DNA of 20,047 bases from a virus: positions 1 to 20,047 of the IMG/VR virus record IMGVR_UViG_3300029309_000443; one strand, 5' to 3'. The notes beneath the pieces were generated by a model. That model saw only the letters and a list, made by a program, of their open reading frames with translations, did not search any database and was not told the DNA's origin. Position numbers and translations under genes: made by a program. How positions within the stretch are numbered: the stretch's first letter is position 1; every line of letters begins with the position of its first letter. This document shows positions 1,402 to 18,566 of this stretch, piece by piece.

Positions 1402-3651
1402 ATGAGTACACCAGAAGCATTTTTTCGTGAGACTATTGATTTAAACAGATATAGTAACGCTGTTGCAAAAGATTTTCAGAAGGCATACAATGATGTAATT
1501 TTAACGGCAGCGAAAAAACTAAAGCAAATAAATATAAGACAAGCCGAAGCTGGAGCAGGGGTTATTGTTGCACCACAGACAAGAAAAAGATTAAGGGCAA
1601 TAATTCAACAGTCAAAAATAAGTTTAGATACTTGGTCAAGGACTACAACAAAGCAGATGATAAAAGAGATTGAAGGTTTAGCGGAAGTACAGGCTGGATT
1701 CATAGAGAATGAACTTAAGAAAGTTGTAAAGTCTGGTGATGTACCAATAAATTCTGTTGCTGTTAGTAGAAAATATGCAGAATCTTTTGTAAAAACAGAT
1801 CCAACACAAACAAATATTTTTACCAGTAAAGAATTTACAGAAGATGATTTTAAAAAGTTTGGCTCTGGAAAGTTTGAACTTACTGCAAGACAGGGAGCAA
1901 TGCAGACTCTTCCTAATGGGCAAACAGTAGAGAAAGCATTTAGAGGCATAGCGGAAAGGCAAAAAGATGCTTTAGCAAGACATATTAGGCAAGGAGTATT
2001 TAGTGGAGAATCAACAGCAGAGATAGCAAGACGCATGGTTGGCAGACTTGAGTTTGGACAGAAAGGAAGTGTAAGACAAATTGCAGCCGCAGGAGGAGAA
2101 CTTACAAAACTTGCAAACTATCAAGTTCAAACAATAGTAAGAACATCTGTTAATCAAGTACAAAATCAAGCATCACAGGCGGTGTATGCGGCAAATAGTA
2201 AAGTTGCACCTAAATATGAATATGTTGCAACTCTGGACAGTAGAACAAGTCCTATTTGTAGAAGGCTTGATGGACAGGAGTTTGCATATAACAAAGGGCC
2301 AACACCACCACAGCATTTTAATTGTCGATCTACTACTGTTCCTGTCGTTGACTTTGATGGATTGCAGAAGAAATATCCAAGCTTGGAAAAGCCACCAGTA
2401 GGCAAGGTTGTTACACGACCTACAGGAGAGGGAACTGGCAGAGTACCACAGGGAACAGCTTATGGTGATTGGTTATTGAAGCAAGATAAAAAGCTACAGG
2501 TTAAAACTTTAGGCAATGAAGGGAAGGTAAATTATTTTAAAAGGTTGGCAAAGAAGGAAGGATCAGGACAGAAGGCGATAAGAAAACTTGTTAGAGAAGA
2601 TGGCAGCGAAAGAAGTCTTAAGGACTTGAAAAGGCTATATGGCAAGCCTAGTGATATAACAATCAAGACACCAAAGCCCAAGTCTGTAACTAAGCCTGTT
2701 GCCTTTGAAAGAAGGTTAGTAGATTCAAGCCCAGAACAATTAAGAAAAGATGGTAAAGCTTTAATTGATGAAGTGGGTGGACTTGATGTTGATAAACTTA
2801 AAAAACTTGAAGCAGAGTTTAAAGTTGCTGCAAAAGAAGCGGCAAGAGATATAGGTGCTTTAGATAAATTTGAAAAAGTTAAAAAGAATTACTTTGATTA
2901 CAGAGAAAAATTTGAAACAAGATTAACTACTTTGAAAAATAAAATGCTTGAAACGACTCTTAATGATGCACAAATAAATAAATATATTAAAAATACAAAG
3001 ATTACAACATGGAACGCTGCTCAAAAAACAGAAATTAGAAGTCAGTTAGATGAATACATAAGAATGTTTAATGGTAATGGTTTTATTGATGCTGAAAATG
3101 GAGTTCCAGCAATAACAAAAATTGGTAAAGCCAGCAGGGCATCTAATTCACACTGGAAAGGTTCTATTACTGCACAGCTTAATAGGCAAGGAAAGATAAG
3201 TAAATCTACAACATTCCATGAAATAACACATTCAGTAGAAGTTATGAACCCAAAACTAAATAATTATATGAATGAATGGAAATTTAAAAGAGCATTTACA
3301 GACAATGCAAAGATAAAAGAAGTTATTAATAACAAGAGAGCTTATGCCGAGTCTGGTCTAGTTGATAGGGCTGCTGGCAAGCCAATTTATAAACTTAAAG
3401 ATATAACAAATATCAGGTATCAACCAAGAGAAAAAGCATTTGTTGATAAGTATTTAGATCCTTATATGGGGAAAAAATATGAACCATATGATTTTTCAAG
3501 ATTTGGAATAAAAGAAAAACTTGAATCATCTGAAGTTTTAACAATGAGCGTTCAACAGTTTGGAAAAGTAGAAAACATGACAAAACTATATAGAGAACAC
3601 CAAGATCTTTTTGAAATAATTGTTGGTATGTCTAGGGCAAAGGGTTTATAG
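1402..3651 (+). CDS. MuF-type minor head protein fused to a C-terminal HExxH metalloprotease-like domain
   Basis: MuF/SPP1 gp7-type proteins are minor head proteins, present in few copies, that bind the portal and may be ejected with DNA. The N-terminal half (about residues 1-320) is helical and ends in the MuF signature: TLDSRTSPICRRLDGQ at 277-292, then PPQHFNCRSTTVPV near 302-315, with C286, H305 and C308 as putative metal ligands. A spacer with a TAYGDWLLKQ segment follows, then a charged helical linker (about 430-550). The last 200 residues carry FHEITHSVE, with H606, E607 and H610 forming an HExxH motif. An ESSEVLTM segment with E711 could supply the third ligand, as in gluzincins. At 749 aa it is far longer than a MuF domain alone, matching the known pattern of MuF proteins with variable C-terminal effector domains. 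AGAGG about 11 bases upstream supports the start. Whether the protease domain acts in virion maturation or in the host is inference. Confidence 0.9.
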   Translation: MSTPEAFFRETIDLNRYSNAVAKDFQKAYNDVILTAAKKLKQINIRQAEAGAGVIVAPQTRKRLRAIIQQSKISLDTWSRTTTKQMIKEIEGLAEVQAGFIENELKKVVKSGDVPINSVAVSRKYAESFVKTDPTQTNIFTSKEFTEDDFKKFGSGKFELTARQGAMQTLPNGQTVEKAFRGIAERQKDALARHIRQGVFSGESTAEIARRMVGRLEFGQKGSVRQIAAAGGELTKLANYQVQTIVRTSVNQVQNQASQAVYAANSKVAPKYEYVATLDSRTSPICRRLDGQEFAYNKGPTPPQHFNCRSTTVPVVDFDGLQKKYPSLEKPPVGKVVTRPTGEGTGRVPQGTAYGDWLLKQDKKLQVKTLGNEGKVNYFKRLAKKEGSGQKAIRKLVREDGSERSLKDLKRLYGKPSDITIKTPKPKSVTKPVAFERRLVDSSPEQLRKDGKALIDEVGGLDVDKLKKLEAEFKVAAKEAARDIGALDKFEKVKKNYFDYREKFETRLTTLKNKMLETTLNDAQINKYIKNTKITTWNAAQKTEIRSQLDEYIRMFNGNGFIDAENGVPAITKIGKASRASNSHWKGSITAQLNRQGKISKSTTFHEITHSVEVMNPKLNNYMNEWKFKRAFTDNAKIKEVINNKRAYAESGLVDRAAGKPIYKLKDITNIRYQPREKAFVDKYLDPYMGKKYEPYDFSRFGIKEKLESSEVLTMSVQQFGKVENMTKLYREHQDLFEIIVGMSRAKGL

Positions 3652-4613: not shown

Positions 4614-4769
4614 ATGAAACTTACTACAAGACAAAAGAATACTCTTAAAAAACACCAAGAGACTCATGGGCATACAAAGGCTCACATGGAATATATGAAA
4701 CGTAAGATGAGGGAGGGCATGAGTTTTACACAGGCTCATAGAATGGCAATGAAGAGGAAGGGTAAATGA
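4614..4769 (+). CDS. Small conserved phage protein, Lys/His/Met-rich (51 aa)
   Basis: The product contains LKKHQETHGHTKAHMEYMKR followed by a MREGMSFTQAHRMAMKRKGK tail. It matches the recurring pattern of tiny phage proteins of the form KHxxxHxxxHMxxMKxxMxxGxSFxxAHxxAMKxxGK, whose function is not established. The regular His/Met/Lys spacing predicts two amphipathic helices. Its stop overlaps the methyltransferase start as ATGA, so the two are probably translated together, and the strong AGAGG of the downstream gene lies inside its last codons. Confidence 0.72.
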   Translation: MKLTTRQKNTLKKHQETHGHTKAHMEYMKRKMREGMSFTQAHRMAMKRKGK

Positions 4770-5599
4770 ATAAAATTTTTTATGGTGACTCTAGGACAGT
4801 ATTAAAGAATGTCAATTTTAAAGCCAGAACTTGTGTGACTTCACCACCTTATTTTGGAGTGAGAAACTATGGTGACAAACCTAATCAAATAGGAATTGAA
4901 AAAACTGTTGATGAATATATTGATAATCTTGTTGAAGTTTTTAGCTTAGTCAAAGATTGTCTTACAGATGATGGAACTTTATGGGTAAATATTGGTGATA
5001 ATTATGAAAAGAAGAATTTGCTTGGAATACCTTTTCAGTTAGCTTTTGCTTTAAAAAAAGATGGCTGGTATCTAAGACAAGACATAATTTGGCATAAACC
5101 AAATCCAATGCCCGAAAGTGTTACTGACAGATGTACTAAATCTCACGAATATATTTTCTTGTTGAGTAAGTCTAAAGATTATTATTTTAATTCTGATGCA
5201 ATTAAAGAAAAAGCTGTAGGAGAAAGATGGGGCAAGAATAAACCAATGGATATAAATAACTCAAAAGATAAAACGAATCAATTTAATGGGTTGTCAAGAG
5301 CAAGACAGATGCTTTTTGAAACAAGAAACAAGCGTTCTGTTTGGACTGTAAAAACAAAACCATATAAAGAATCACATTTTGCAGTTTTTCCTAAAGAATT
5401 AATTACACCTTGTATATTATCAGGCTCAGAACATGGAGATATTGTTCTTGATCCTTTTATTGGCTCTGGAACTACGGCAGAAACAGCAAAAAATTTAGGA
5501 AGAAAATATATTGGTGTAGAACTTAATGAAGAATATAAAAATATTGTTGATAAAAGAAGCGATTTATTTCAATACGATTTAGACCTAAAATATGGATAA
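4766..5599 (+). CDS. Beta-class DNA methyltransferase (N4-cytosine or N6-adenine)
   Basis: It transfers a methyl group from S-adenosylmethionine to an exocyclic amino group in DNA. The N-terminus carries the catalytic motif IV as TSPPYFGVRNYG (SPPY at residues 26-29). The C-terminus carries the AdoMet-binding motif I as DPFIGSGTTAE (from residue 229), followed by an acidic GVELNEEY. Motif IV before motif I places it in the beta class (N6_N4_Mtase family). SPPY is more common in N4-cytosine enzymes but does not decide the target base. At 277 aa it is full length. No restriction endonuclease is adjacent, so it looks like an orphan phage enzyme, perhaps protecting phage DNA from host restriction. 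AGAGGAAGG lies upstream and the start overlaps the previous stop as ATGA. Placement inside the head operon suggests late expression. Confidence 0.92.
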   Translation: MNKIFYGDSRTVLKNVNFKARTCVTSPPYFGVRNYGDKPNQIGIEKTVDEYIDNLVEVFSLVKDCLTDDGTLWVNIGDNYEKKNLLGIPFQLAFALKKDGWYLRQDIIWHKPNPMPESVTDRCTKSHEYIFLLSKSKDYYFNSDAIKEKAVGERWGKNKPMDINNSKDKTNQFNGLSRARQMLFETRNKRSVWTVKTKPYKESHFAVFPKELITPCILSGSEHGDIVLDPFIGSGTTAETAKNLGRKYIGVELNEEYKNIVDKRSDLFQYDLDLKYG

Positions 5600-13101: not shown

Positions 13102-13469
13102 TGGCTACATTTAATGATTCAACACTTGGTACAACAACAGGTGCGACTACTCCTACATATGGCTCTGTAGAAAATGCTTCACCTAAAAATATTACAGTGC
13201 AATTTGGAGATGGATATAAGTCAAGAAATGCATTTGGATTAAATCAAAATCCAAAAACTTATAATTTCAGCTTTGTAGTTTCTGTATCTGATGGTGATAA
13301 AATTTTAGCTTTTTTTGATGACAGAGCTAAAGACAGTGCAAGTTTTACATTTACCCCACCAGCAACAAGTACAGCAAGACAATTTATTTGTGAAAGATAT
13401 GTTAGAAATAATACTTATTTAAATAGAGTTACAATACAAGCAACATTTGAGGAGGTATTTCAGCCATGA
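13101..13469 (+). CDS. Minor tail protein M-like
   Basis: This member of the lambda gpM-type minor tail protein family acts in building the tail tip. The core ITVQFGDGYKSRNAFGLNQN (FGDGYxxRxxxGxN), then NFSFVVSVSDGDKILAFFDD and SFTFTPP followed by QFICERY, matches the family pattern well. At 122 aa the length is usual. The ATG overlaps the tape measure stop by one base and has a strong GGAGGT upstream, located inside the tape measure's last codons. It is followed by L, K and I in the standard order. Confidence 0.85.
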   Translation: MATFNDSTLGTTTGATTPTYGSVENASPKNITVQFGDGYKSRNAFGLNQNPKTYNFSFVVSVSDGDKILAFFDDRAKDSASFTFTPPATSTARQFICERYVRNNTYLNRVTIQATFEEVFQP

Positions 13470-14059
13470 CAATACCAGTTGAACAATTACAAAAACTAGA
13501 TAGCATTACAATTATTGAATTGTTTCAGCTTGATTTAGTTTCTGGTTTGCATTACGGAGCTACAGACACTTCAGCTACTACTTTATATAGATTTCATAAT
13601 GGTACGAATGAAATCAACACAGATATTATTTGGCAGGGAAATTCATACGCTGCTATAGCTTGTCAGGCTGAAGGCTTTGAGTCAGGTGATAATTCTGTTA
13701 TGGCTAGACCAACAATGACTTTTGCTAATACTGTAGGAAACTTTTCTACTATCTTGCAGATAGTAAATACAATAACTCCTTTCAATGATTTACAAGAAGC
13801 TCAAATAACAAGAATTAGAACGATGGCACAGTTTTTAGATGGACAAAACTTTGAAAATCAAATCAATCCTTATGGAACACCAGACAGCACAAAAGAACTT
13901 GAGCAACAAAAGTTTTTAATTAATAAAAAAATTGTTGAAAATAATAATATTTGTAGTTTTGAGCTTGTTAATACTATTGATTTTGAAAGTCTCAATATAC
14001 CTAGGTTACAAATAACTAAAGATAGATTTCCAGCAGTGGGGAGTTATGTTTTTATATGA
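13466..14059 (+). CDS. Minor tail protein L-like, lacking the C-terminal cysteine cluster
   Basis: The opening IPVEQLQKLDSITIIELFQL, the DIIWQGNSYAAIACQAEGFE segment, RPTMTFANTVGNFS and the ENNNICSFELVNTIDF region match the gpL-type minor tail family. At 197 aa it stops after LQITKDRFPAVGSYVFI. Lambda gpL continues with four cysteines that bind an iron-sulfur cluster. Here only two cysteines exist in the whole protein, neither in a CxxxxxxxxC-type terminal arrangement. The frame closes cleanly with TGA overlapping the next start (ATGA), so this looks like a naturally short form rather than a frameshift. A strong GGAGG precedes the start. Confidence 0.82.
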   Translation: MTIPVEQLQKLDSITIIELFQLDLVSGLHYGATDTSATTLYRFHNGTNEINTDIIWQGNSYAAIACQAEGFESGDNSVMARPTMTFANTVGNFSTILQIVNTITPFNDLQEAQITRIRTMAQFLDGQNFENQINPYGTPDSTKELEQQKFLINKKIVENNNICSFELVNTIDFESLNIPRLQITKDRFPAVGSYVFI

Positions 14060-14391
14060 TTTGGAAAGAAGAAGCCAAAAAACATTTTATTGACTGTAAA
14101 CCAGCAGAAGGTTGTGGATTGTTGATAGAAAAAAATGGTAATGAATTATTTTATCCTTGTAAAAATATAGCTTCACATATAACTGAAGATATTACTTTCG
14201 CTATAGATCCTTTAGATTATGCAGCCTGTGAAGATGATGGAGCAGAAGTATTAGCAGTAATACACTCTCATGTAGAAGGCAGCGCAGACCCTTCAGAGGC
14301 AGACATTAATAACTGTAAGTTATATATGATTGATTGGTATATTTATTCTGTACAAGATGATAATTGGTGTTTTTTGGAGGCGGAAACATGA
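14056..14391 (+). CDS. Tail assembly protein K-like, JAMM/Mov34 metallopeptidase domain only
   Basis: The JAMM isopeptidase-type zinc motif is complete: E18 in KPAEGCGLL, then H70-S-H72 followed after seven residues by S80 and D83 (IHSHVEGSADPSEAD). Lambda-type gpK usually continues into a C-terminal NlpC/P60 peptidase; at 111 aa this protein ends just after the JAMM fold (WCFLEAET). The gene sits between L and I with ATGA overlaps on both sides, so it is not obviously truncated by mutation. The likely role is tail tip assembly or processing, possibly acting on the ubiquitin-like I protein encoded next door. That pairing is known from comparative analysis of phage tails; activity here is inference. 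Confidence 0.87.
   Translation: MIWKEEAKKHFIDCKPAEGCGLLIEKNGNELFYPCKNIASHITEDITFAIDPLDYAACEDDGAEVLAVIHSHVEGSADPSEADINNCKLYMIDWYIYSVQDDNWCFLEAET
14376..14380 (+). promoter_or_regulatory. Shine-Dalgarno sequence deciding the start of the I-like gene
   Basis: GGAGG seven bases before the ATG at 14388 selects that codon over an in-frame ATG at 14364, which has no such site and would add eight residues (MVFFGGGN) not expected in the family. The chosen start also gives the ATGA overlap with the K-like stop. Confidence 0.75.
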
Positions 14392-14936
14392 CCAAAAAAA
14401 TTAAATTATATGGCACTTTAAGAAAATTATGCGGTGTGAAAGAATTTAAAGCAGATGTTTTTACTGTAGATCAGGTATTTAGTTTTATAAAAGTAAATTT
14501 TCCTAATACTAAAGAACATCTTACTAATGCCTGTTACAGTGTCGTAGTTAATGAAAGAGATATTACTTTTGCGAATATATTAATTCAAACTGACGAAGAG
14601 ATAAAAGTAGTTCCATTAATTTCTGGTAATTTTATTTTTGGTTTAGGTAGTTTAATAGCTGGCTTCTTTACGTCTTCTGTTGTAACAAGTGCTTTAACTA
14701 TGTTGGCTGTTAACGTAGGTATAGGATTTTTATCAGATTTATTAGCCCCAACCCCATCTGCACCAGAGGCAGATCCGCAAGTTTCATCTTTTTTAAGCAA
14801 TCAAAATGCAAACACAACAAAGGCTGGAGGTGCAGCCCCTTTGATTTTTGGTGAATGTTTAGTAGGTTCTATTGTTATAAGTGCTGGTGCTGATACAGTA
14901 CAAGTAAATGACATTCCAGAATCAGACGTACCTTAA
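14388..14936 (+). CDS. Tail assembly protein I-like (ubiquitin-like beta-grasp plus hydrophobic region)
   Basis: Residues 1-80 have the ThiS/MoaD-like beta-grasp pattern: KIKLYGTLRKLCG, a DVFTVDQVFSFI helix, CYSVVVNERDI and a terminal EEIKVVPLISG strand. Residues about 83-115 are strongly hydrophobic with Gly/Ala (FIFGLGSLIAGFF to GIGFLSDLLAP), followed by a Pro/Ala/Asp linker and GAAPLIFGECLVGSIVISAG, which is typical of gpI-type proteins. The length (182 aa) is close to family size. It is translated from a strong GGAGG overlapping the K-like gene and precedes J by 12 bases. The protein is thought to act in tip assembly and may not remain in the virion. Confidence 0.86.
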   Translation: MTKKIKLYGTLRKLCGVKEFKADVFTVDQVFSFIKVNFPNTKEHLTNACYSVVVNERDITFANILIQTDEEIKVVPLISGNFIFGLGSLIAGFFTSSVVTSALTMLAVNVGIGFLSDLLAPTPSAPEADPQVSSFLSNQNANTTKAGGAAPLIFGECLVGSIVISAGADTVQVNDIPESDVP

Positions 14937-14948
14937 TCCTATAAAAAA

Positions 14949-17900
14949 ATGGCACGAGAAATTAGCAATAATAATTTTCAATTAAATGAAGATTTACCAG
15001 ATAATTTTTCAAAATCTGTTCAATTTTTTACTTTTCTTGATTTAGTTTCTGATGGAGCAGAAATTGAAGGTTTTTCTACACCTTCAAAAAATAATTTACC
15101 AATACCAAGTAGTTTATTAAATCCTTCTACAGCTAACGACCCTGAGTTAGTTACTGAAGATGAAAAAACTTATATCCAGTTAGCACAACAGGATATTTTT
15201 TTGGATGGTCGTGCAATACGAGATGAAGGAGGTAATGAAAATATAATAAATACAGCTTTAGCAATAAGAACAGGAAGGGAAAACCAACCAATAATGACAG
15301 GTGTGAATGAATTTAAAATAAATGGTAATTTAACCTCGGCTAAAGTATTAAACAATGGAAATGCTGAACTCAATAAAGTAACAGGTACTATAGATGCTGG
15401 TGTTGACGTTAATAGCACACCAAAAGCAGTAATAATAACTTTAAGGTGGCCTAGTTTAAGGCAACTAAGTGCAGATGACGGTAGTACAGTGGGTTTGGGC
15501 ATTAACAGTGGTGAATTTAAAGGTGAATCTGGCAGCGTGGATATACTTTTGAGAATAAGAAATAAAAACGGTATAGAAATTAAAAGAAAACAAGTTCTGG
15601 TTAACACTATTTCAGTTGGACAATACAGTGTTGATTACAGACTTGAAATTCCAGTGAGTATTCATCAAGATTTAACTGCTATTAATGATAATTACCCATT
15701 AAGTGTAGATGTTTTAAGGTCTGATCAAGAATTTAGAGATTCTGCTTTAGGAAGGAGTCCTTTTAGTAAAACTAATCGTAGGGGTAATAATATTTATGAG
15801 GAAGGAACAAGAAGATTCACTGAATTTTTCTTTTCTGGGCTTCAAGGTGTTATTCCTTTAAATCAAGCAAATGCTACATTTCCAAAAAGTGCATACATAG
15901 GATTAAGGTACTCGGCAGAACAGTTTCCAAACATACCTCAAAGAAAATATTTTATAAGAGGAATTAAGGTCAGAATACCAACATTCGTAAATATTGACAC
16001 CGCTAATACAGGTCGAATCATATACCCATCAGGATATACTTTTGGAGCGTTAACAGGAGTAAGAAATGAATCTAATGGTAAATTCTGGACAACAGACCCA
16101 GCTTGGATTTTGTATGCACTTTTGACTGAAGATTATGGTTTAAATATAGAAGATTCAAAAATTGATTCTGCATCTTTTTTTGCTGCTAGTCAATATTGTT
16201 GTGATTTTAATAATACTGGTTTGCCTAGATTTTCTTTTAATGGTGTATTGAATAGAAGAAAAAAAGCCTTAGACGTTATTAAAGAAATTGCAAGTTTAAT
16301 GAGGGCTACTCTTTACTACAAGAATGGTTCTATAAAAATTGCAATAGATAAACCAGAAACTGTTACTTCATATTTGTTTACAAATGCAAATGTTGTTGAT
16401 GGAGCTTTTAATTATTCTGGTAATGACAAAGATAAAAAATATACACAAATAAATGTGAGTTACTTTAATAACGACATACAAGAATTAGACCTGATATCAA
16501 TAGAAGAACCCTCTATGATAACAAAATTAGGTTTAAATCAAACTAATATATCAGCTTTACATACTACAGACAGACAGCAAGCAAAAAGATTAGGTCGAAC
16601 AATTTTATATACTTCATTATTTGAATCAGAAATTATTACTTTTGATTGTGGTTTAGAAGCAGCAGCTATATTAGAACCTTTTGATATAATTAAAGTTGCA
16701 GATAGATTAAAAGAGACATTCAGAGCAAGCGGAAGAATTAATTCTGTTACTAGTTCAACAGTAGTGGTTGTTGATGATAGTACAGATACAACAGTTGGAA
16801 CTATTGGCGATACTTTTTTAATTATTGATAAGAAAGGTAATGTTCAAGAGAAAACTATTAGTGGAGTAAATGGCAGTTCTATTACATTATCAAGTAGTTT
16901 TTCTACAGATGAGCTACCTCAAGCTGGTACGATTTGGGCTGTTAAAACACAAAATATTCAACACAGAAAATTTAGAGTTACCAACATTAAACAAAAAGAT
17001 AATTTTACTTTTACTGTTACAGCAATTACTTATGACGATAATAAATATAGTTATATAGATGATCAATCAAGTAATTTTGGTGAAGGTGATGCCCCTTCTA
17101 CACTTTTAGATACATTAGAGCCACCAGAAATTTTTGAATTAAAAGAAGAATTAATTGTAGTGAATGGTAGAGCTACAAGCAGAATAGTATTAAATTTTGC
17201 ATATGTTAATGGGGCAAAAAGATATCAAGTAAGTTATAAGCATGATAATTCTCCAAGCAAAACTCAAAATGTTTTTGACAATCAATTTATATTAACTAAT
17301 AATGCTGCTGGGTCTTATGAATTTACAGTTAAGTCAGTTAATACAGCACATTTAGTAAGTAAAACTGGATCTGTTAGAACAATATTAGCAGAAGGATTAT
17401 CTGATAAACCTAGTGCAGTCAGTAATTTAAGAGCCGAAGAAAGTGGTGATAATTTAATTTTAAAATTTGATCGTGCTACTGATAAAGATGTTCTGTTTGG
17501 TGGCTTTGTAGATGTAAAATTAGCACTAATAACTGATGGAACTGCAACTTTACAAGATTCAAATCCCGAAAAACGTGTTGATGGGAATATTAATGAAATT
17601 GTTTTTAATGACTTTCAAAGCGGAGAATATTTTTTAAAATTTATTGACGTAAACGGCAACGAATCCGAAACTGCTACATCTGTTGTTGTTAATAGGACTA
17701 TAAGTTCAAATAATTTACTTGCTCAACAAATAAGAGAAAATCCAAGCTTTTCTGGTACAAAAGTTAATTTAAGACTAGATGGCACAGTTAATGGCTTAGT
17801 GCTAGACAGTGGTACAACGATTGATTCGATTACAGATTTTAATACTCTTGCTTTAGCAGATGGAACTACTTTTAATAATATTGATGATGTTATTAGTGGA

Positions 17901-18566
17901 ATTTCTACATCAGGATCATACATTTTTAATGCAAATGATATAAATCTTGGTGCGCCTTTTAGATTACATCTTGAACCACATTTTAAAAAATCTGGATTTG
18001 ATACTGCAAATTTGTGGGATTCATACACAGATGATATGGATGATTGGCCTGATATTTTTACATCAGGTACAACAGTTGTTGATAAAAGTGCTGATTTAAT
18101 ATTTCAAGTCGCAAAAAGTCAAACAGCAACAGCCAGTACAAGTTTTGAAACTTTTACAAATACAGATATTATTGCTCAAACTTTATCATTTAAAGTTTTA
18201 GTGGAAAACCAAAGCACTTATGAGAATGTAGATATAGAAGAACTAGGAGTAAATTTAATATTTAGACCTAGAACTGAAAGAAGTATTGATAATGCAAATG
18301 CTACAAATGGTGTTTTAACAAGTTCTAGTAGTGGAGCAACTTCAGTAACTTTTGCTAAAAAATTCTTTACAGGAACAACTTCTATTGGTGGTAGCACAAC
18401 AGCATTTAATCCAGTTGTTTTTATAAATATAAATAATATGTCTGATAATGATTTCTTCACTGTAACCAATGTTTCTGGTACAGGATTTACTGTCAGTATT
18501 AAAAATGGCTCTAGTTTTGTAGTTAGACAATTTACATATAGTGCTTTTGGATATGGAGAAGGGTAG
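14949..18566 (+). CDS. Tip attachment (host specificity) protein J-like
   Basis: The trimeric J protein forms the tail tip hub and carries the host-binding end. At 1205 aa it has the usual length. The N-terminal part contains IFLDGRAIRDEGG and, near residues 310-345, AYIGLRYSAEQFPNIPQRKY. From about 380, TTDPAWILYALLTEDYGLNI and RRKKALDVIKEIASLMRATL match the phage-tail hub domain. Two fibronectin type III-like domains follow (about 720-815 and 818-905). The last 300 residues are Ser/Thr/Asn-rich and predicted beta, ending in a FTYSAFGYGEG terminus; this is where host range is likely set. There is no Shine-Dalgarno sequence; the leader is A-rich (ATAAAAAA) and the second codon is GCA. Receptor identity cannot be read from the sequence. 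Confidence 0.92.
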   Translation: MAREISNNNFQLNEDLPDNFSKSVQFFTFLDLVSDGAEIEGFSTPSKNNLPIPSSLLNPSTANDPELVTEDEKTYIQLAQQDIFLDGRAIRDEGGNENIINTALAIRTGRENQPIMTGVNEFKINGNLTSAKVLNNGNAELNKVTGTIDAGVDVNSTPKAVIITLRWPSLRQLSADDGSTVGLGINSGEFKGESGSVDILLRIRNKNGIEIKRKQVLVNTISVGQYSVDYRLEIPVSIHQDLTAINDNYPLSVDVLRSDQEFRDSALGRSPFSKTNRRGNNIYEEGTRRFTEFFFSGLQGVIPLNQANATFPKSAYIGLRYSAEQFPNIPQRKYFIRGIKVRIPTFVNIDTANTGRIIYPSGYTFGALTGVRNESNGKFWTTDPAWILYALLTEDYGLNIEDSKIDSASFFAASQYCCDFNNTGLPRFSFNGVLNRRKKALDVIKEIASLMRATLYYKNGSIKIAIDKPETVTSYLFTNANVVDGAFNYSGNDKDKKYTQINVSYFNNDIQELDLISIEEPSMITKLGLNQTNISALHTTDRQQAKRLGRTILYTSLFESEIITFDCGLEAAAILEPFDIIKVADRLKETFRASGRINSVTSSTVVVVDDSTDTTVGTIGDTFLIIDKKGNVQEKTISGVNGSSITLSSSFSTDELPQAGTIWAVKTQNIQHRKFRVTNIKQKDNFTFTVTAITYDDNKYSYIDDQSSNFGEGDAPSTLLDTLEPPEIFELKEELIVVNGRATSRIVLNFAYVNGAKRYQVSYKHDNSPSKTQNVFDNQFILTNNAAGSYEFTVKSVNTAHLVSKTGSVRTILAEGLSDKPSAVSNLRAEESGDNLILKFDRATDKDVLFGGFVDVKLALITDGTATLQDSNPEKRVDGNINEIVFNDFQSGEYFLKFIDVNGNESETATSVVVNRTISSNNLLAQQIRENPSFSGTKVNLRLDGTVNGLVLDSGTTIDSITDFNTLALADGTTFNNIDDVISGISTSGSYIFNANDINLGAPFRLHLEPHFKKSGFDTANLWDSYTDDMDDWPDIFTSGTTVVDKSADLIFQVAKSQTATASTSFETFTNTDIIAQTLSFKVLVENQSTYENVDIEELGVNLIFRPRTERSIDNANATNGVLTSSSSGATSVTFAKKFFTGTTSIGGSTTAFNPVVFININNMSDNDFFTVTNVSGTGFTVSIKNGSSFVVRQFTYSAFGYGEG

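What the first reader, a model, noticed from the sequence alone, without database searches (positions are those of the whole stretch)
14056..14936. JAMM-only K protein beside a ubiquitin-like I protein
The K-like gene keeps a complete JAMM motif (E18, H70, H72, S80, D83) but has no NlpC/P60 part, while the overlapping I gene starts with a beta-grasp domain ending in PLISG. The peptidoglycan-cutting function has been lost or moved, leaving a minimal deubiquitinase-like/ubiquitin-like pair. This is a compact case for testing whether JAMM processes the beta-grasp domain during tip assembly.
Basis: partly seen in the sequence, partly recalled or inferred. Interest (0 to 1): 0.55.

Follow-up and report, generated by a model that had tools for sequence, protein, structure and literature searches.

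The report
Phage tail-tip enzyme beside ubiquitin-like partner
A marine virus that infects bacteria carries a stripped-down ubiquitin-cutting-type enzyme right beside (in relatives joined to) a ubiquitin-like tail-plug protein, which makes an untested 2006 idea, that such enzymes trim tail proteins during assembly, easy to test.

Summary
K (14056-14391) is a JAMM-only protein with E18, H70, H72, S80 and D83. I (14388-14936) is a MoaD-like ubiquitin-like domain (Ubl) followed by a lambda-type plug; the genes overlap by ATGA. No NlpC/P60 domain is in the window or in the complete genomes of the nearest cultured relatives.

Survey: in 367 I genes the Ubl ends P-x-x-x-G without exception, and the zinc motif is intact in 283 of 283 loci with a recognised JAMM. 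NlpC is missing from 97 of those loci, all in one marine clade. There K and I are often one polypeptide (Prochlorococcus phages; 61 of 79 loci of one scan); in two contigs K, I and the J hub are one open frame. Conversely, 14 of 14 loci with a Ubl-less plug (5 strong matches) lack JAMM.

Best explanation: JAMM cuts the Ubl off the plug during tail-tip assembly, probably after residue 81 rather than G80. Lambda and T1 cryo-EM models both begin five residues after this glycine, which fits a cut or a flexible hinge.

Iyer et al. predicted this cleavage in 2006; the fusions and the NlpC-less clade are the addition. "Peptidoglycan-cutting lost" is not supported. Cleavage remains untested.

The parts
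13466..14059 (+). L-type minor tail (hub) protein, 197 aa; without the C-terminal cysteine-rich part of lambda gpL
   Evidence: PF05100 E 7.6e-24; 2 Cys against 8 in HK629 L
14056..14391 (+). K-position JAMM-only metallopeptidase-like protein, 111 aa
   Evidence: PF14464 42.8 bits; phrog_2635 and phrog_30; conserved in 15 IMG/VR loci
14107..14109 (+). codon of E18, the catalytic-type Glu of JAMM
14263..14304 (+). H70-S-H72-x7-S80-x2-D83, zinc-site motif of JAMM
   Evidence: HxH..S..D intact in 283 of 283 JAMM-bearing loci
14388..14936 (+). I-type tail-tip (insertion/plug) protein, 182 aa
   Evidence: phrog_32 E 2.7e-21; profile match to lambda gpI 8iyk_I E 1.7e-31
14388..14627 (+). N-terminal ubiquitin-like (MoaD-like beta-grasp) domain, residues 1-80
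   Evidence: AF2 model and VIA Z 10.4 to MoaD
14613..14630 (+). P76-L-I-S-G80-N81, Ubl C-terminal tail; predicted scissile bond N81|F82 (inferred)
   Evidence: P and G in 301 of 301 distinct I tails, next residue S/A/N in 298 of 301; register
14631..14936 (+). hydrophobic segment and plug part of I
   Evidence: alignment to lambda/T1 I proteins; role from PMC11101478, PMC10721106
14056..14059 (+). ATGA overlap of the L stop and K start
14388..14391 (+). ATGA overlap of the K stop and I start
14949..18566 (+). J-type hub and central fibre protein, 1205 aa
   Evidence: phrog_31 E 1.1e-115

Best explanation
K is a tail-assembly JAMM peptidase whose dedicated substrate is the ubiquitin-like domain at the N-terminus of I. 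While the tip is built, K binds the Ubl of I and cuts just behind it (in the window most likely N81|F82), freeing the hydrophobic plug part of I to seat inside the J/L hub under the tape-measure protein; the Ubl, and K where it is separate, are discarded. In Prochlorococcus phages the same enzyme, Ubl and plug are one chain and would cut themselves, in cis or in trans. Shown here: the domains, the intact zinc motif, the MoaD-like fold, the invariant tail, the linkage and the fusions. Inferred: zinc binding, catalysis, the exact bond, timing and the fate of the Ubl.
For: (1) JAMM and Ubl stay together: HxH..S..D intact in 283 of 283 JAMM-bearing loci; P-x-x-x-G in 367 of 367 I loci. (2) They are missing together: 14 of 14 phrog_1180 loci (Ubl-less plug; 5 strong, 9 weak matches) have no JAMM and no Ubl hit in about 19 kb, while 4 of 4 positive controls ring. 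Two of the 14 have an NlpC-only gene over Pfam's cut-off directly before a plug-hub frame. (3) Natural fusions: JAMM-Ubl-plug in one 322-aa frame of MED4-184 and 61 of 79 loci with full motifs; JAMM-Ubl-plug-J in one frame in two contigs. (4) The tail looks like a JAMM substrate: invariant Gly at the penultimate position, then a small residue (298 of 301). CsRpn11 still cuts after Gly78Ala and is stricter at Gly77 (PMC6043591). [quoted passage not shown] DRJAMM cuts MoaD-MoaE (PMC8832034). Best fold matches of a fused relative's JAMM part are P. furiosus JAMM1 alone (VIA Z 13.6) and with SAMP2. (6) Lambda gpI is modelled from residue 101 (PMC11101478), its Gly is 96; T1 gp34 from 92 (PMC11945409), its Gly is 87.
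Against: No cleavage has been seen by anyone in what I read. The structural start at Gly+5 is explained equally well by a flexible hinge; the lambda paper speaks of an unresolved N-terminal domain, not of a cut. One lambda paper models gpI only from 135 (PMC10721106). Known substrates end Gly-Gly; here the last position is N in the window clade (23 of 23 distinct), S or A elsewhere. An invariant P-x-x-x-G could be a fold or hinge requirement; Gly does not vary, so its dependence on JAMM cannot be tested inside the family. No JAMM-Ubl docking could be read from the fused model (no coordinates or PAE given).
Confidence: 0.6

Rival explanations
1. K is a binding chaperone, not a protease in practice: the JAMM fold recognises the Ubl of I and delivers or holds the plug until the hub closes; the Ubl stays on I as a flexible handle below the tip.
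For: Co-retention and fusion need only binding; density simply missing before residue 101 or 92 fits a tethered domain (PMC11101478, PMC11945409).
Against: All five catalytic-type residues are invariant in 19 of 19 diverse K proteins and the motif is intact in 283 of 283; pure binders usually lose them (recalled from MPN- proteins).
Confidence: 0.22
2. The JAMM domain works against host ubiquitin-like conjugation that attacks tails (Bil-type defence, whose conjugates sit on the central fibre), with the Ubl of I as a by-stander or decoy.
For: Bil conjugates Ubl to the central tail fibre (told in PMC11364771, citing Hor et al. 2024, not read); J is the neighbouring gene.
Against: PADLOC gives no hit for K or I of the window; the Ubl partner is encoded in the same unit and fused to JAMM; the pair is present in enterobacterial prophages and marine phages alike.
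Confidence: 0.06
3. Sulfur-carrier role: JAMM frees the Ubl end for thiolation, serving the iron-sulfur cluster of L.
For: MoaD/ThiS-like fold; lambda gpL holds an iron-sulfur cluster (PMC10721106).
Against: Window L has 2 Cys and MED4-184 L has 1, both without the cysteine-rich C-terminal part, yet JAMM and Ubl are fully kept; the Ubl does not end in Gly-Gly.
Confidence: 0.04
4. Relic: K is the remains of a two-domain K that lost NlpC and is on its way out.
For: NlpC missing in 97 of 283 JAMM-bearing loci, one clade.
Against: dN/dS about 0.12, motif intact in 30 of 30 JAMM-only loci and HxH..S..D in 67 of 67 fused loci, clade diverse and widespread.
Confidence: 0.03

Closest known systems
Lambda tail assembly protein K (JAMM + NlpC/P60), phrog_30
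   Same: Gene position after L and before I; JAMM half homologous with intact motif
   Different: No NlpC/P60 half; 111 aa
Lambda gpI / T1 gp34 insertion (plug) proteins, phrog_32
   Same: Ubl, glycine, hydrophobic segment, plug motif, place before J
   Different: N/F after the glycine instead of S/A-K; no PF06805 hit at E 0.1
phrog_35166, JAMM-Ubl-plug fusion of Prochlorococcus phage MED4-184 (function listed as unknown)
   Same: Same three modules, no NlpC, sister clade
   Different: One polypeptide there, two genes here
Archaeal/bacterial JAMM-Ubl pairs (HvJAMM1-SAMP1, PfJAMM1-SAMP2, DRJAMM with MoaD-MoaE)
   Same: JAMM acting on a MoaD-like Ubl joined by a peptide bond to another domain; best fold matches
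   Different: Those Ubls end Gly-Gly (partly recalled) and serve cofactor synthesis or conjugation; here the cargo is a virion plug
RcGTA-type tail genes (NlpC-only gene, plug at the start of the hub gene)
   Same: Same gene order and plug-hub logic
   Different: Have NlpC but neither JAMM nor Ubl; the reciprocal arrangement

Membership tests
JAMM/MPN+ (Prok-JAB) peptidase | E...HxH-x7-S-x2-D motif | tested here: met
   E18, H70, H72, S80, D83
JAMM/MPN+ (Prok-JAB) peptidase | profile match over the curated cut-off | tested here: met
   PF14464 42.8 bits, cut-off 25
JAMM/MPN+ (Prok-JAB) peptidase | JAMM fold of the window's own K | not tested
   only the JAMM part of fused relative L031 was modelled: VIA Z 13.6 to PfJAMM1
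JAMM/MPN+ (Prok-JAB) peptidase | zinc-dependent peptidase activity | not testable with these tools
   needs protein
Lambda-type tail assembly protein K | JAMM domain in the gene between L and I | tested here: met
Lambda-type tail assembly protein K | C-terminal NlpC/P60 domain | tested here: not met
   no hit in K nor in six frames of the window; so it is filed as a JAMM-only protein in the K position, not as a two-domain K
Lambda gpI-type insertion/plug protein | N-terminal Ubl plus C-terminal plug, gene before J | tested here: met
   phrog_32 E 2.7e-21; family profile to lambda and T1 I chains E 1.7e-31 and 9e-44; fold
Lambda gpI-type insertion/plug protein | Pfam PF06805 match | tested here: not met
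   not listed at E 0.1
MoaD/ThiS/SAMP ubiquitin-like modifiers | beta-grasp fold of MoaD type | tested here: met
   VIA Z 10.4, rmsd 2.7, 78 aligned, model residues 1-80
MoaD/ThiS/SAMP ubiquitin-like modifiers | protein ends in Gly-Gly | tested here: not met
   S-G80-N81 inside a 182-aa chain
MoaD/ThiS/SAMP ubiquitin-like modifiers | E1-like activating partner | not tested
   window is a fragment
phrog_35166 fusion protein | JAMM and Ubl-plug in one open frame | tested here: not met
   two frames with ATGA overlap
Bil/CBASS-type deubiquitinase | match to PADLOC defence JAB models | tested here: inconclusive
   0 families for window K and I; two weak JAB hits (E 0.007, 0.055) for MED4-184

The most novel reading that the evidence does not exclude
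A self-cleaving tail-tip zymogen: in Prochlorococcus-type phages one chain carries protease, ubiquitin-like domain and membrane plug, and in two contigs the J hub as well. The JAMM domain cuts its own chain behind the Ubl when the tip has assembled, so Ubl-directed proteolysis is the maturation switch of a virion, and the window's two-gene form is the same switch working in trans. This would be the deubiquitinase/ubiquitin-like pair at its smallest, used as a virus assembly checkpoint.
Probability: 0.3. Interest if true: 0.8.

Novelty: new variant of a known kind. Interest (0 to 1): 0.52.

Why it matters
JAMM of lambda K was listed as of unknown function in 2003 (PMC300881) and its substrate was guessed in 2006 (PMC1779556); none of the papers found by my searches tests it. 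The marine phages separate the question from the NlpC domain and give a one-chain substrate-plus-enzyme that can be expressed in E. coli and read on a gel. A positive answer would make ubiquitin-like processing part of virion maturation in one of the commonest phage tail types and would explain why the first ~100 residues of gpI are missing from tail structures. A negative answer would show a JAMM with an intact, strictly conserved site doing something else.

Tried and rejected
Peptidoglycan hydrolase moved elsewhere: searched PF00877 in the window and in nine records (0 hits in 8; S-CBS4 rings as control); searched PF01464, PF01510, PF00959, PF01551, PF08291 and PF05257 in the window, MED4-184, MED4-117 and S-CBS4 (0 of 4 each). 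15 of 59 annotated MED4-184 proteins were also scanned with Pfam; no lysin found. A divergent lysin is not excluded.

G-versus-JAMM covariation inside the I family: impossible, because G never varies. Loci first tagged 'none' or 'NlpC-only' (84 of 367) are not evidence of JAMM-less K: many are contig ends, and the four NlpC-only ones read have other genes before I or a broken K (L261). They were kept out of the JAMM counts. The next-residue count picked a later P-x-x-x-G in some rows and was redone; both find G in all.

JAMM motif: the Glu was not found in 8 of 283; by my reading seven are cut by contig ends and one (L154) is a short frame.

NlpC loss: JAMM-only plus fused rows form one clade at 93/68, so two losses are not excluded; the root choice and several long branches are unsure.

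Foldseek and VIA results cover only the confident parts; the plug part of both models is under pLDDT 50. The absence of lambda gpI from the fold lists shows nothing.

phrog_1180 matches: 5 of 14 strong (E below 1e-26), 9 weak (E 1e-4 to 1e-3); weak ones may not be plugs.

Papers: passages only of PMC1779556 (also outline), PMC11101478, PMC10721106, PMC13243795, PMC11945409, PMC4443979, PMC8832034, PMC6043591, PMC300881, PMC11364771, PMC12987554, PMC11354881; PMC12724387 was searched and held none of the terms. Searches on which 'not tested in print' rests: (open-licence library only; listings and the passages above).

Full report
What is there. The window is a 20,047-base IMG/VR record with head and tail genes in lambda-like order. 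In the tip region L (13466-14059), K (14056-14391), I (14388-14936) and J (14949-18566) follow each other; L/K and K/I overlap by ATGA. K is 111 aa, JAMM only: Prok-JAB 42.8 bits, residues E18, H70, H72, S80, D83. I is 182 aa; residues 1-80 are modelled as a beta-grasp fold nearest MoaD (VIA Z 10.4, rmsd 2.7, 78 aligned), followed by a hydrophobic segment and the plug part that a profile of the family links to lambda gpI, T1 gp34 and a third solved tail protein.

No NlpC/P60. PF00877 finds nothing in six frames of the window, in the complete genomes of cyanophages MED4-184 and MED4-117, or in six further IMG/VR contigs of up to 34.7 kb; S-CBS4, whose K has both domains, rings as control. Six other lysin families also give 0 of 4 records (S-CBS4 was among the four). 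So NlpC was not found to have moved. But 'peptidoglycan-cutting lost' assumes a role that I found no proof of: lambda gpK was not detected in virions (PMC10721106, passage), the lambda cell-wall enzyme is called unidentified (PMC11101478, passage), and Iyer et al. thought NlpC/P60 might itself process the Ubl (PMC1779556, passage).

Relatives. The closest cultured phages carry K and I as one 322-aa protein, JAMM-linker-Ubl-plug (in MED4-117 I saw only a coding sequence of the same size at that place); PHROGs lists it as phrog_35166, unknown function. A scan with that protein gave 79 loci, of which 61 show one open frame with Glu, HxH..S..D and the Ubl glycine (my count of the listing, L100 not included). 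The linker between the two matched domains is 18-23 aa in 66 fused loci. One further locus of that scan (L100) and a second contig (L127), 72% identical over the queried part, carry JAMM, Ubl, plug and the J hub in one frame of 1173 and 1150 codons, with the remaining J-like sequence in an overlapping second frame. Window-type pairs were found in 26 loci from two scans, four repeats of the same contigs not counted (my count of the listings).

Survey. With four home-made profiles I classified 367 I loci, including the window, from 366 loci: JAMM+NlpC before I 186, fused JAMM-I 67, JAMM-only 30, no JAMM recognised 84. Collapsing the repeated contigs that I recognised gives 184, 66, 27 and 81 of 358. 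Loci were chosen by similarity to I or K, so the shares are not those of nature. HxH..S..D is intact in 283 of 283 JAMM-bearing loci; the Glu was found in 275, with seven of the rest at contig ends. P-x-x-x-G closes the Ubl in 367 of 367 (301 of 301 distinct), followed by S, A or N in 298 of 301 and preceded by a variable residue.

Reciprocal case. phrog_1180 describes plug proteins without the Ubl. In 398 genomes drawn from the phylum of an Enterobacter genome it matched in 13 genomes, 14 places. None of the 14 has a JAMM or Ubl hit in about 19 kb; the four control loci all ring. Two have an NlpC-only gene over Pfam's cut-off directly before the plug-hub frame, one of them with a GTA TIM-barrel domain. 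Nine of the 14 matches are weak. So JAMM and Ubl come and go together, and NlpC is independent of them.

History. In a 72-row tree of JAMM plus I pieces (72 of 167 non-redundant rows) the JAMM-only rows form one clade (100/100), the fused rows one clade (99/81), and both together one clade (93/68), among relatives with NlpC. The simplest story is one loss of NlpC in marine phages, then fusion in one branch, then addition of the hub in a twig. Median dN/dS is 0.119 (K), 0.145 (Ubl) and 0.345 (plug) in the window clade, and 0.116, 0.119 and 0.197 in the fused clade (NG86, dS near 1).

Where the cut would be. Local alignments to ThiS, moaD_arch, Urm1-like and SAMP1 profiles all place G80 on the last but one profile position (75/76, 87/88, 78/79, 90/91; all under their cut-offs), and the fold alignment runs to residue 81 against the last residue of MoaD and SAMP1. 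SAMP1 ends VSGG (PMC4443979); that MoaD ends Gly-Gly is recalled. Hence G80 answers to the penultimate Gly and N81 to the last. In CsRpn11 the last Gly can be Ala while Val or Glu block, and the penultimate Gly is the stricter one (PMC6043591). The phage pattern, invariant G then S/A/N, fits; I saw no test of Asn in those passages. HvJAMM1 cuts SAMP1-MoaE precisely after the SAMP1 C-terminal Gly, and the cut needs its last residues in vivo (PMC4443979); PMC8832034 cites earlier work in which the diglycine was not needed for linear fusions.

Structures. HK629 I is identical to lambda gpI; its glycine is G96. The lambda tail map shows gpI from residue 101 in the closed state and calls the N-terminus unresolved (PMC11101478); another lambda model starts at 135 (PMC10721106). 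T1 gp34 is built from 92 of 199 (PMC11945409); its glycine is 87 by my count on the alignment. Both longest models start at Gly+5. A cut there, or a loose hinge there, gives the same picture. Iyer et al. stated that I is not in the mature tail (PMC1779556), while gpI is now found by mass spectrometry (PMC10721106); loss of the N-terminal part would reconcile the two (inference).

Mechanism and standing. Most likely K trims the Ubl from the plug of I during tip assembly (0.6). Binding without cutting is the main rival (0.22). Counter-defence, sulfur relay and relic are less likely; sulfur relay because the window and MED4-184 L proteins lack the cysteine-rich end while JAMM and Ubl stay. The core idea is Iyer, Burroughs and Aravind 2006, who also noted NlpC-only K, I-J fusions and one E. 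coli prophage with I fused to JAB. What I add is the NlpC-less marine clade with every JAMM and tail residue kept, the many JAMM-Ubl-plug fusions, the K-I-J fusion, the reciprocal JAMM-less and Ubl-less loci, the one-residue correction of the site, and the Gly+5 coincidence. Hence 'new variant of a known kind', interest 0.52.

Noticed in passing
L100:718-4236 and L127:4977-8426: JAMM, Ubl, plug and J hub domains in one open frame, with the remaining J-like sequence in a second, overlapping frame; resembles the T5 arrangement of plug and hub in one protein.
   Followed up: partly
window 13466-14059: L lacks the C-terminal cysteine-rich (iron-sulfur) part of lambda gpL; MED4-184, L101 and L100 L proteins too.
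   Followed up: partly
window 1402-3651: Mu-F-type head morphogenesis protein of 749 aa with an HEITH (zincin-like) motif in its C-terminal third, seen on reading.
   Followed up: no
L016 and L110 (cyanophages MED4-184, MED4-117): No match to seven common lysin families in two complete phage genomes; their host-lysis enzyme is unrecognised.
   Followed up: partly
window 4766-5599: DNA methyltransferase-like gene set among head genes (reading).
   Followed up: no
L368:1486-1728, L381:1486-1728: Stand-alone plug protein of about 75-81 aa (phrog_1180, labelled 'tail assembly chaperone'), the plug of I without any Ubl; the label looks wrong.
   Followed up: partly
L020:4261-5854, L267, L278: Other genes (KilA-N/anti-repressor types and unknowns) sit between K and I or before I in several phages and prophages.
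   Followed up: no
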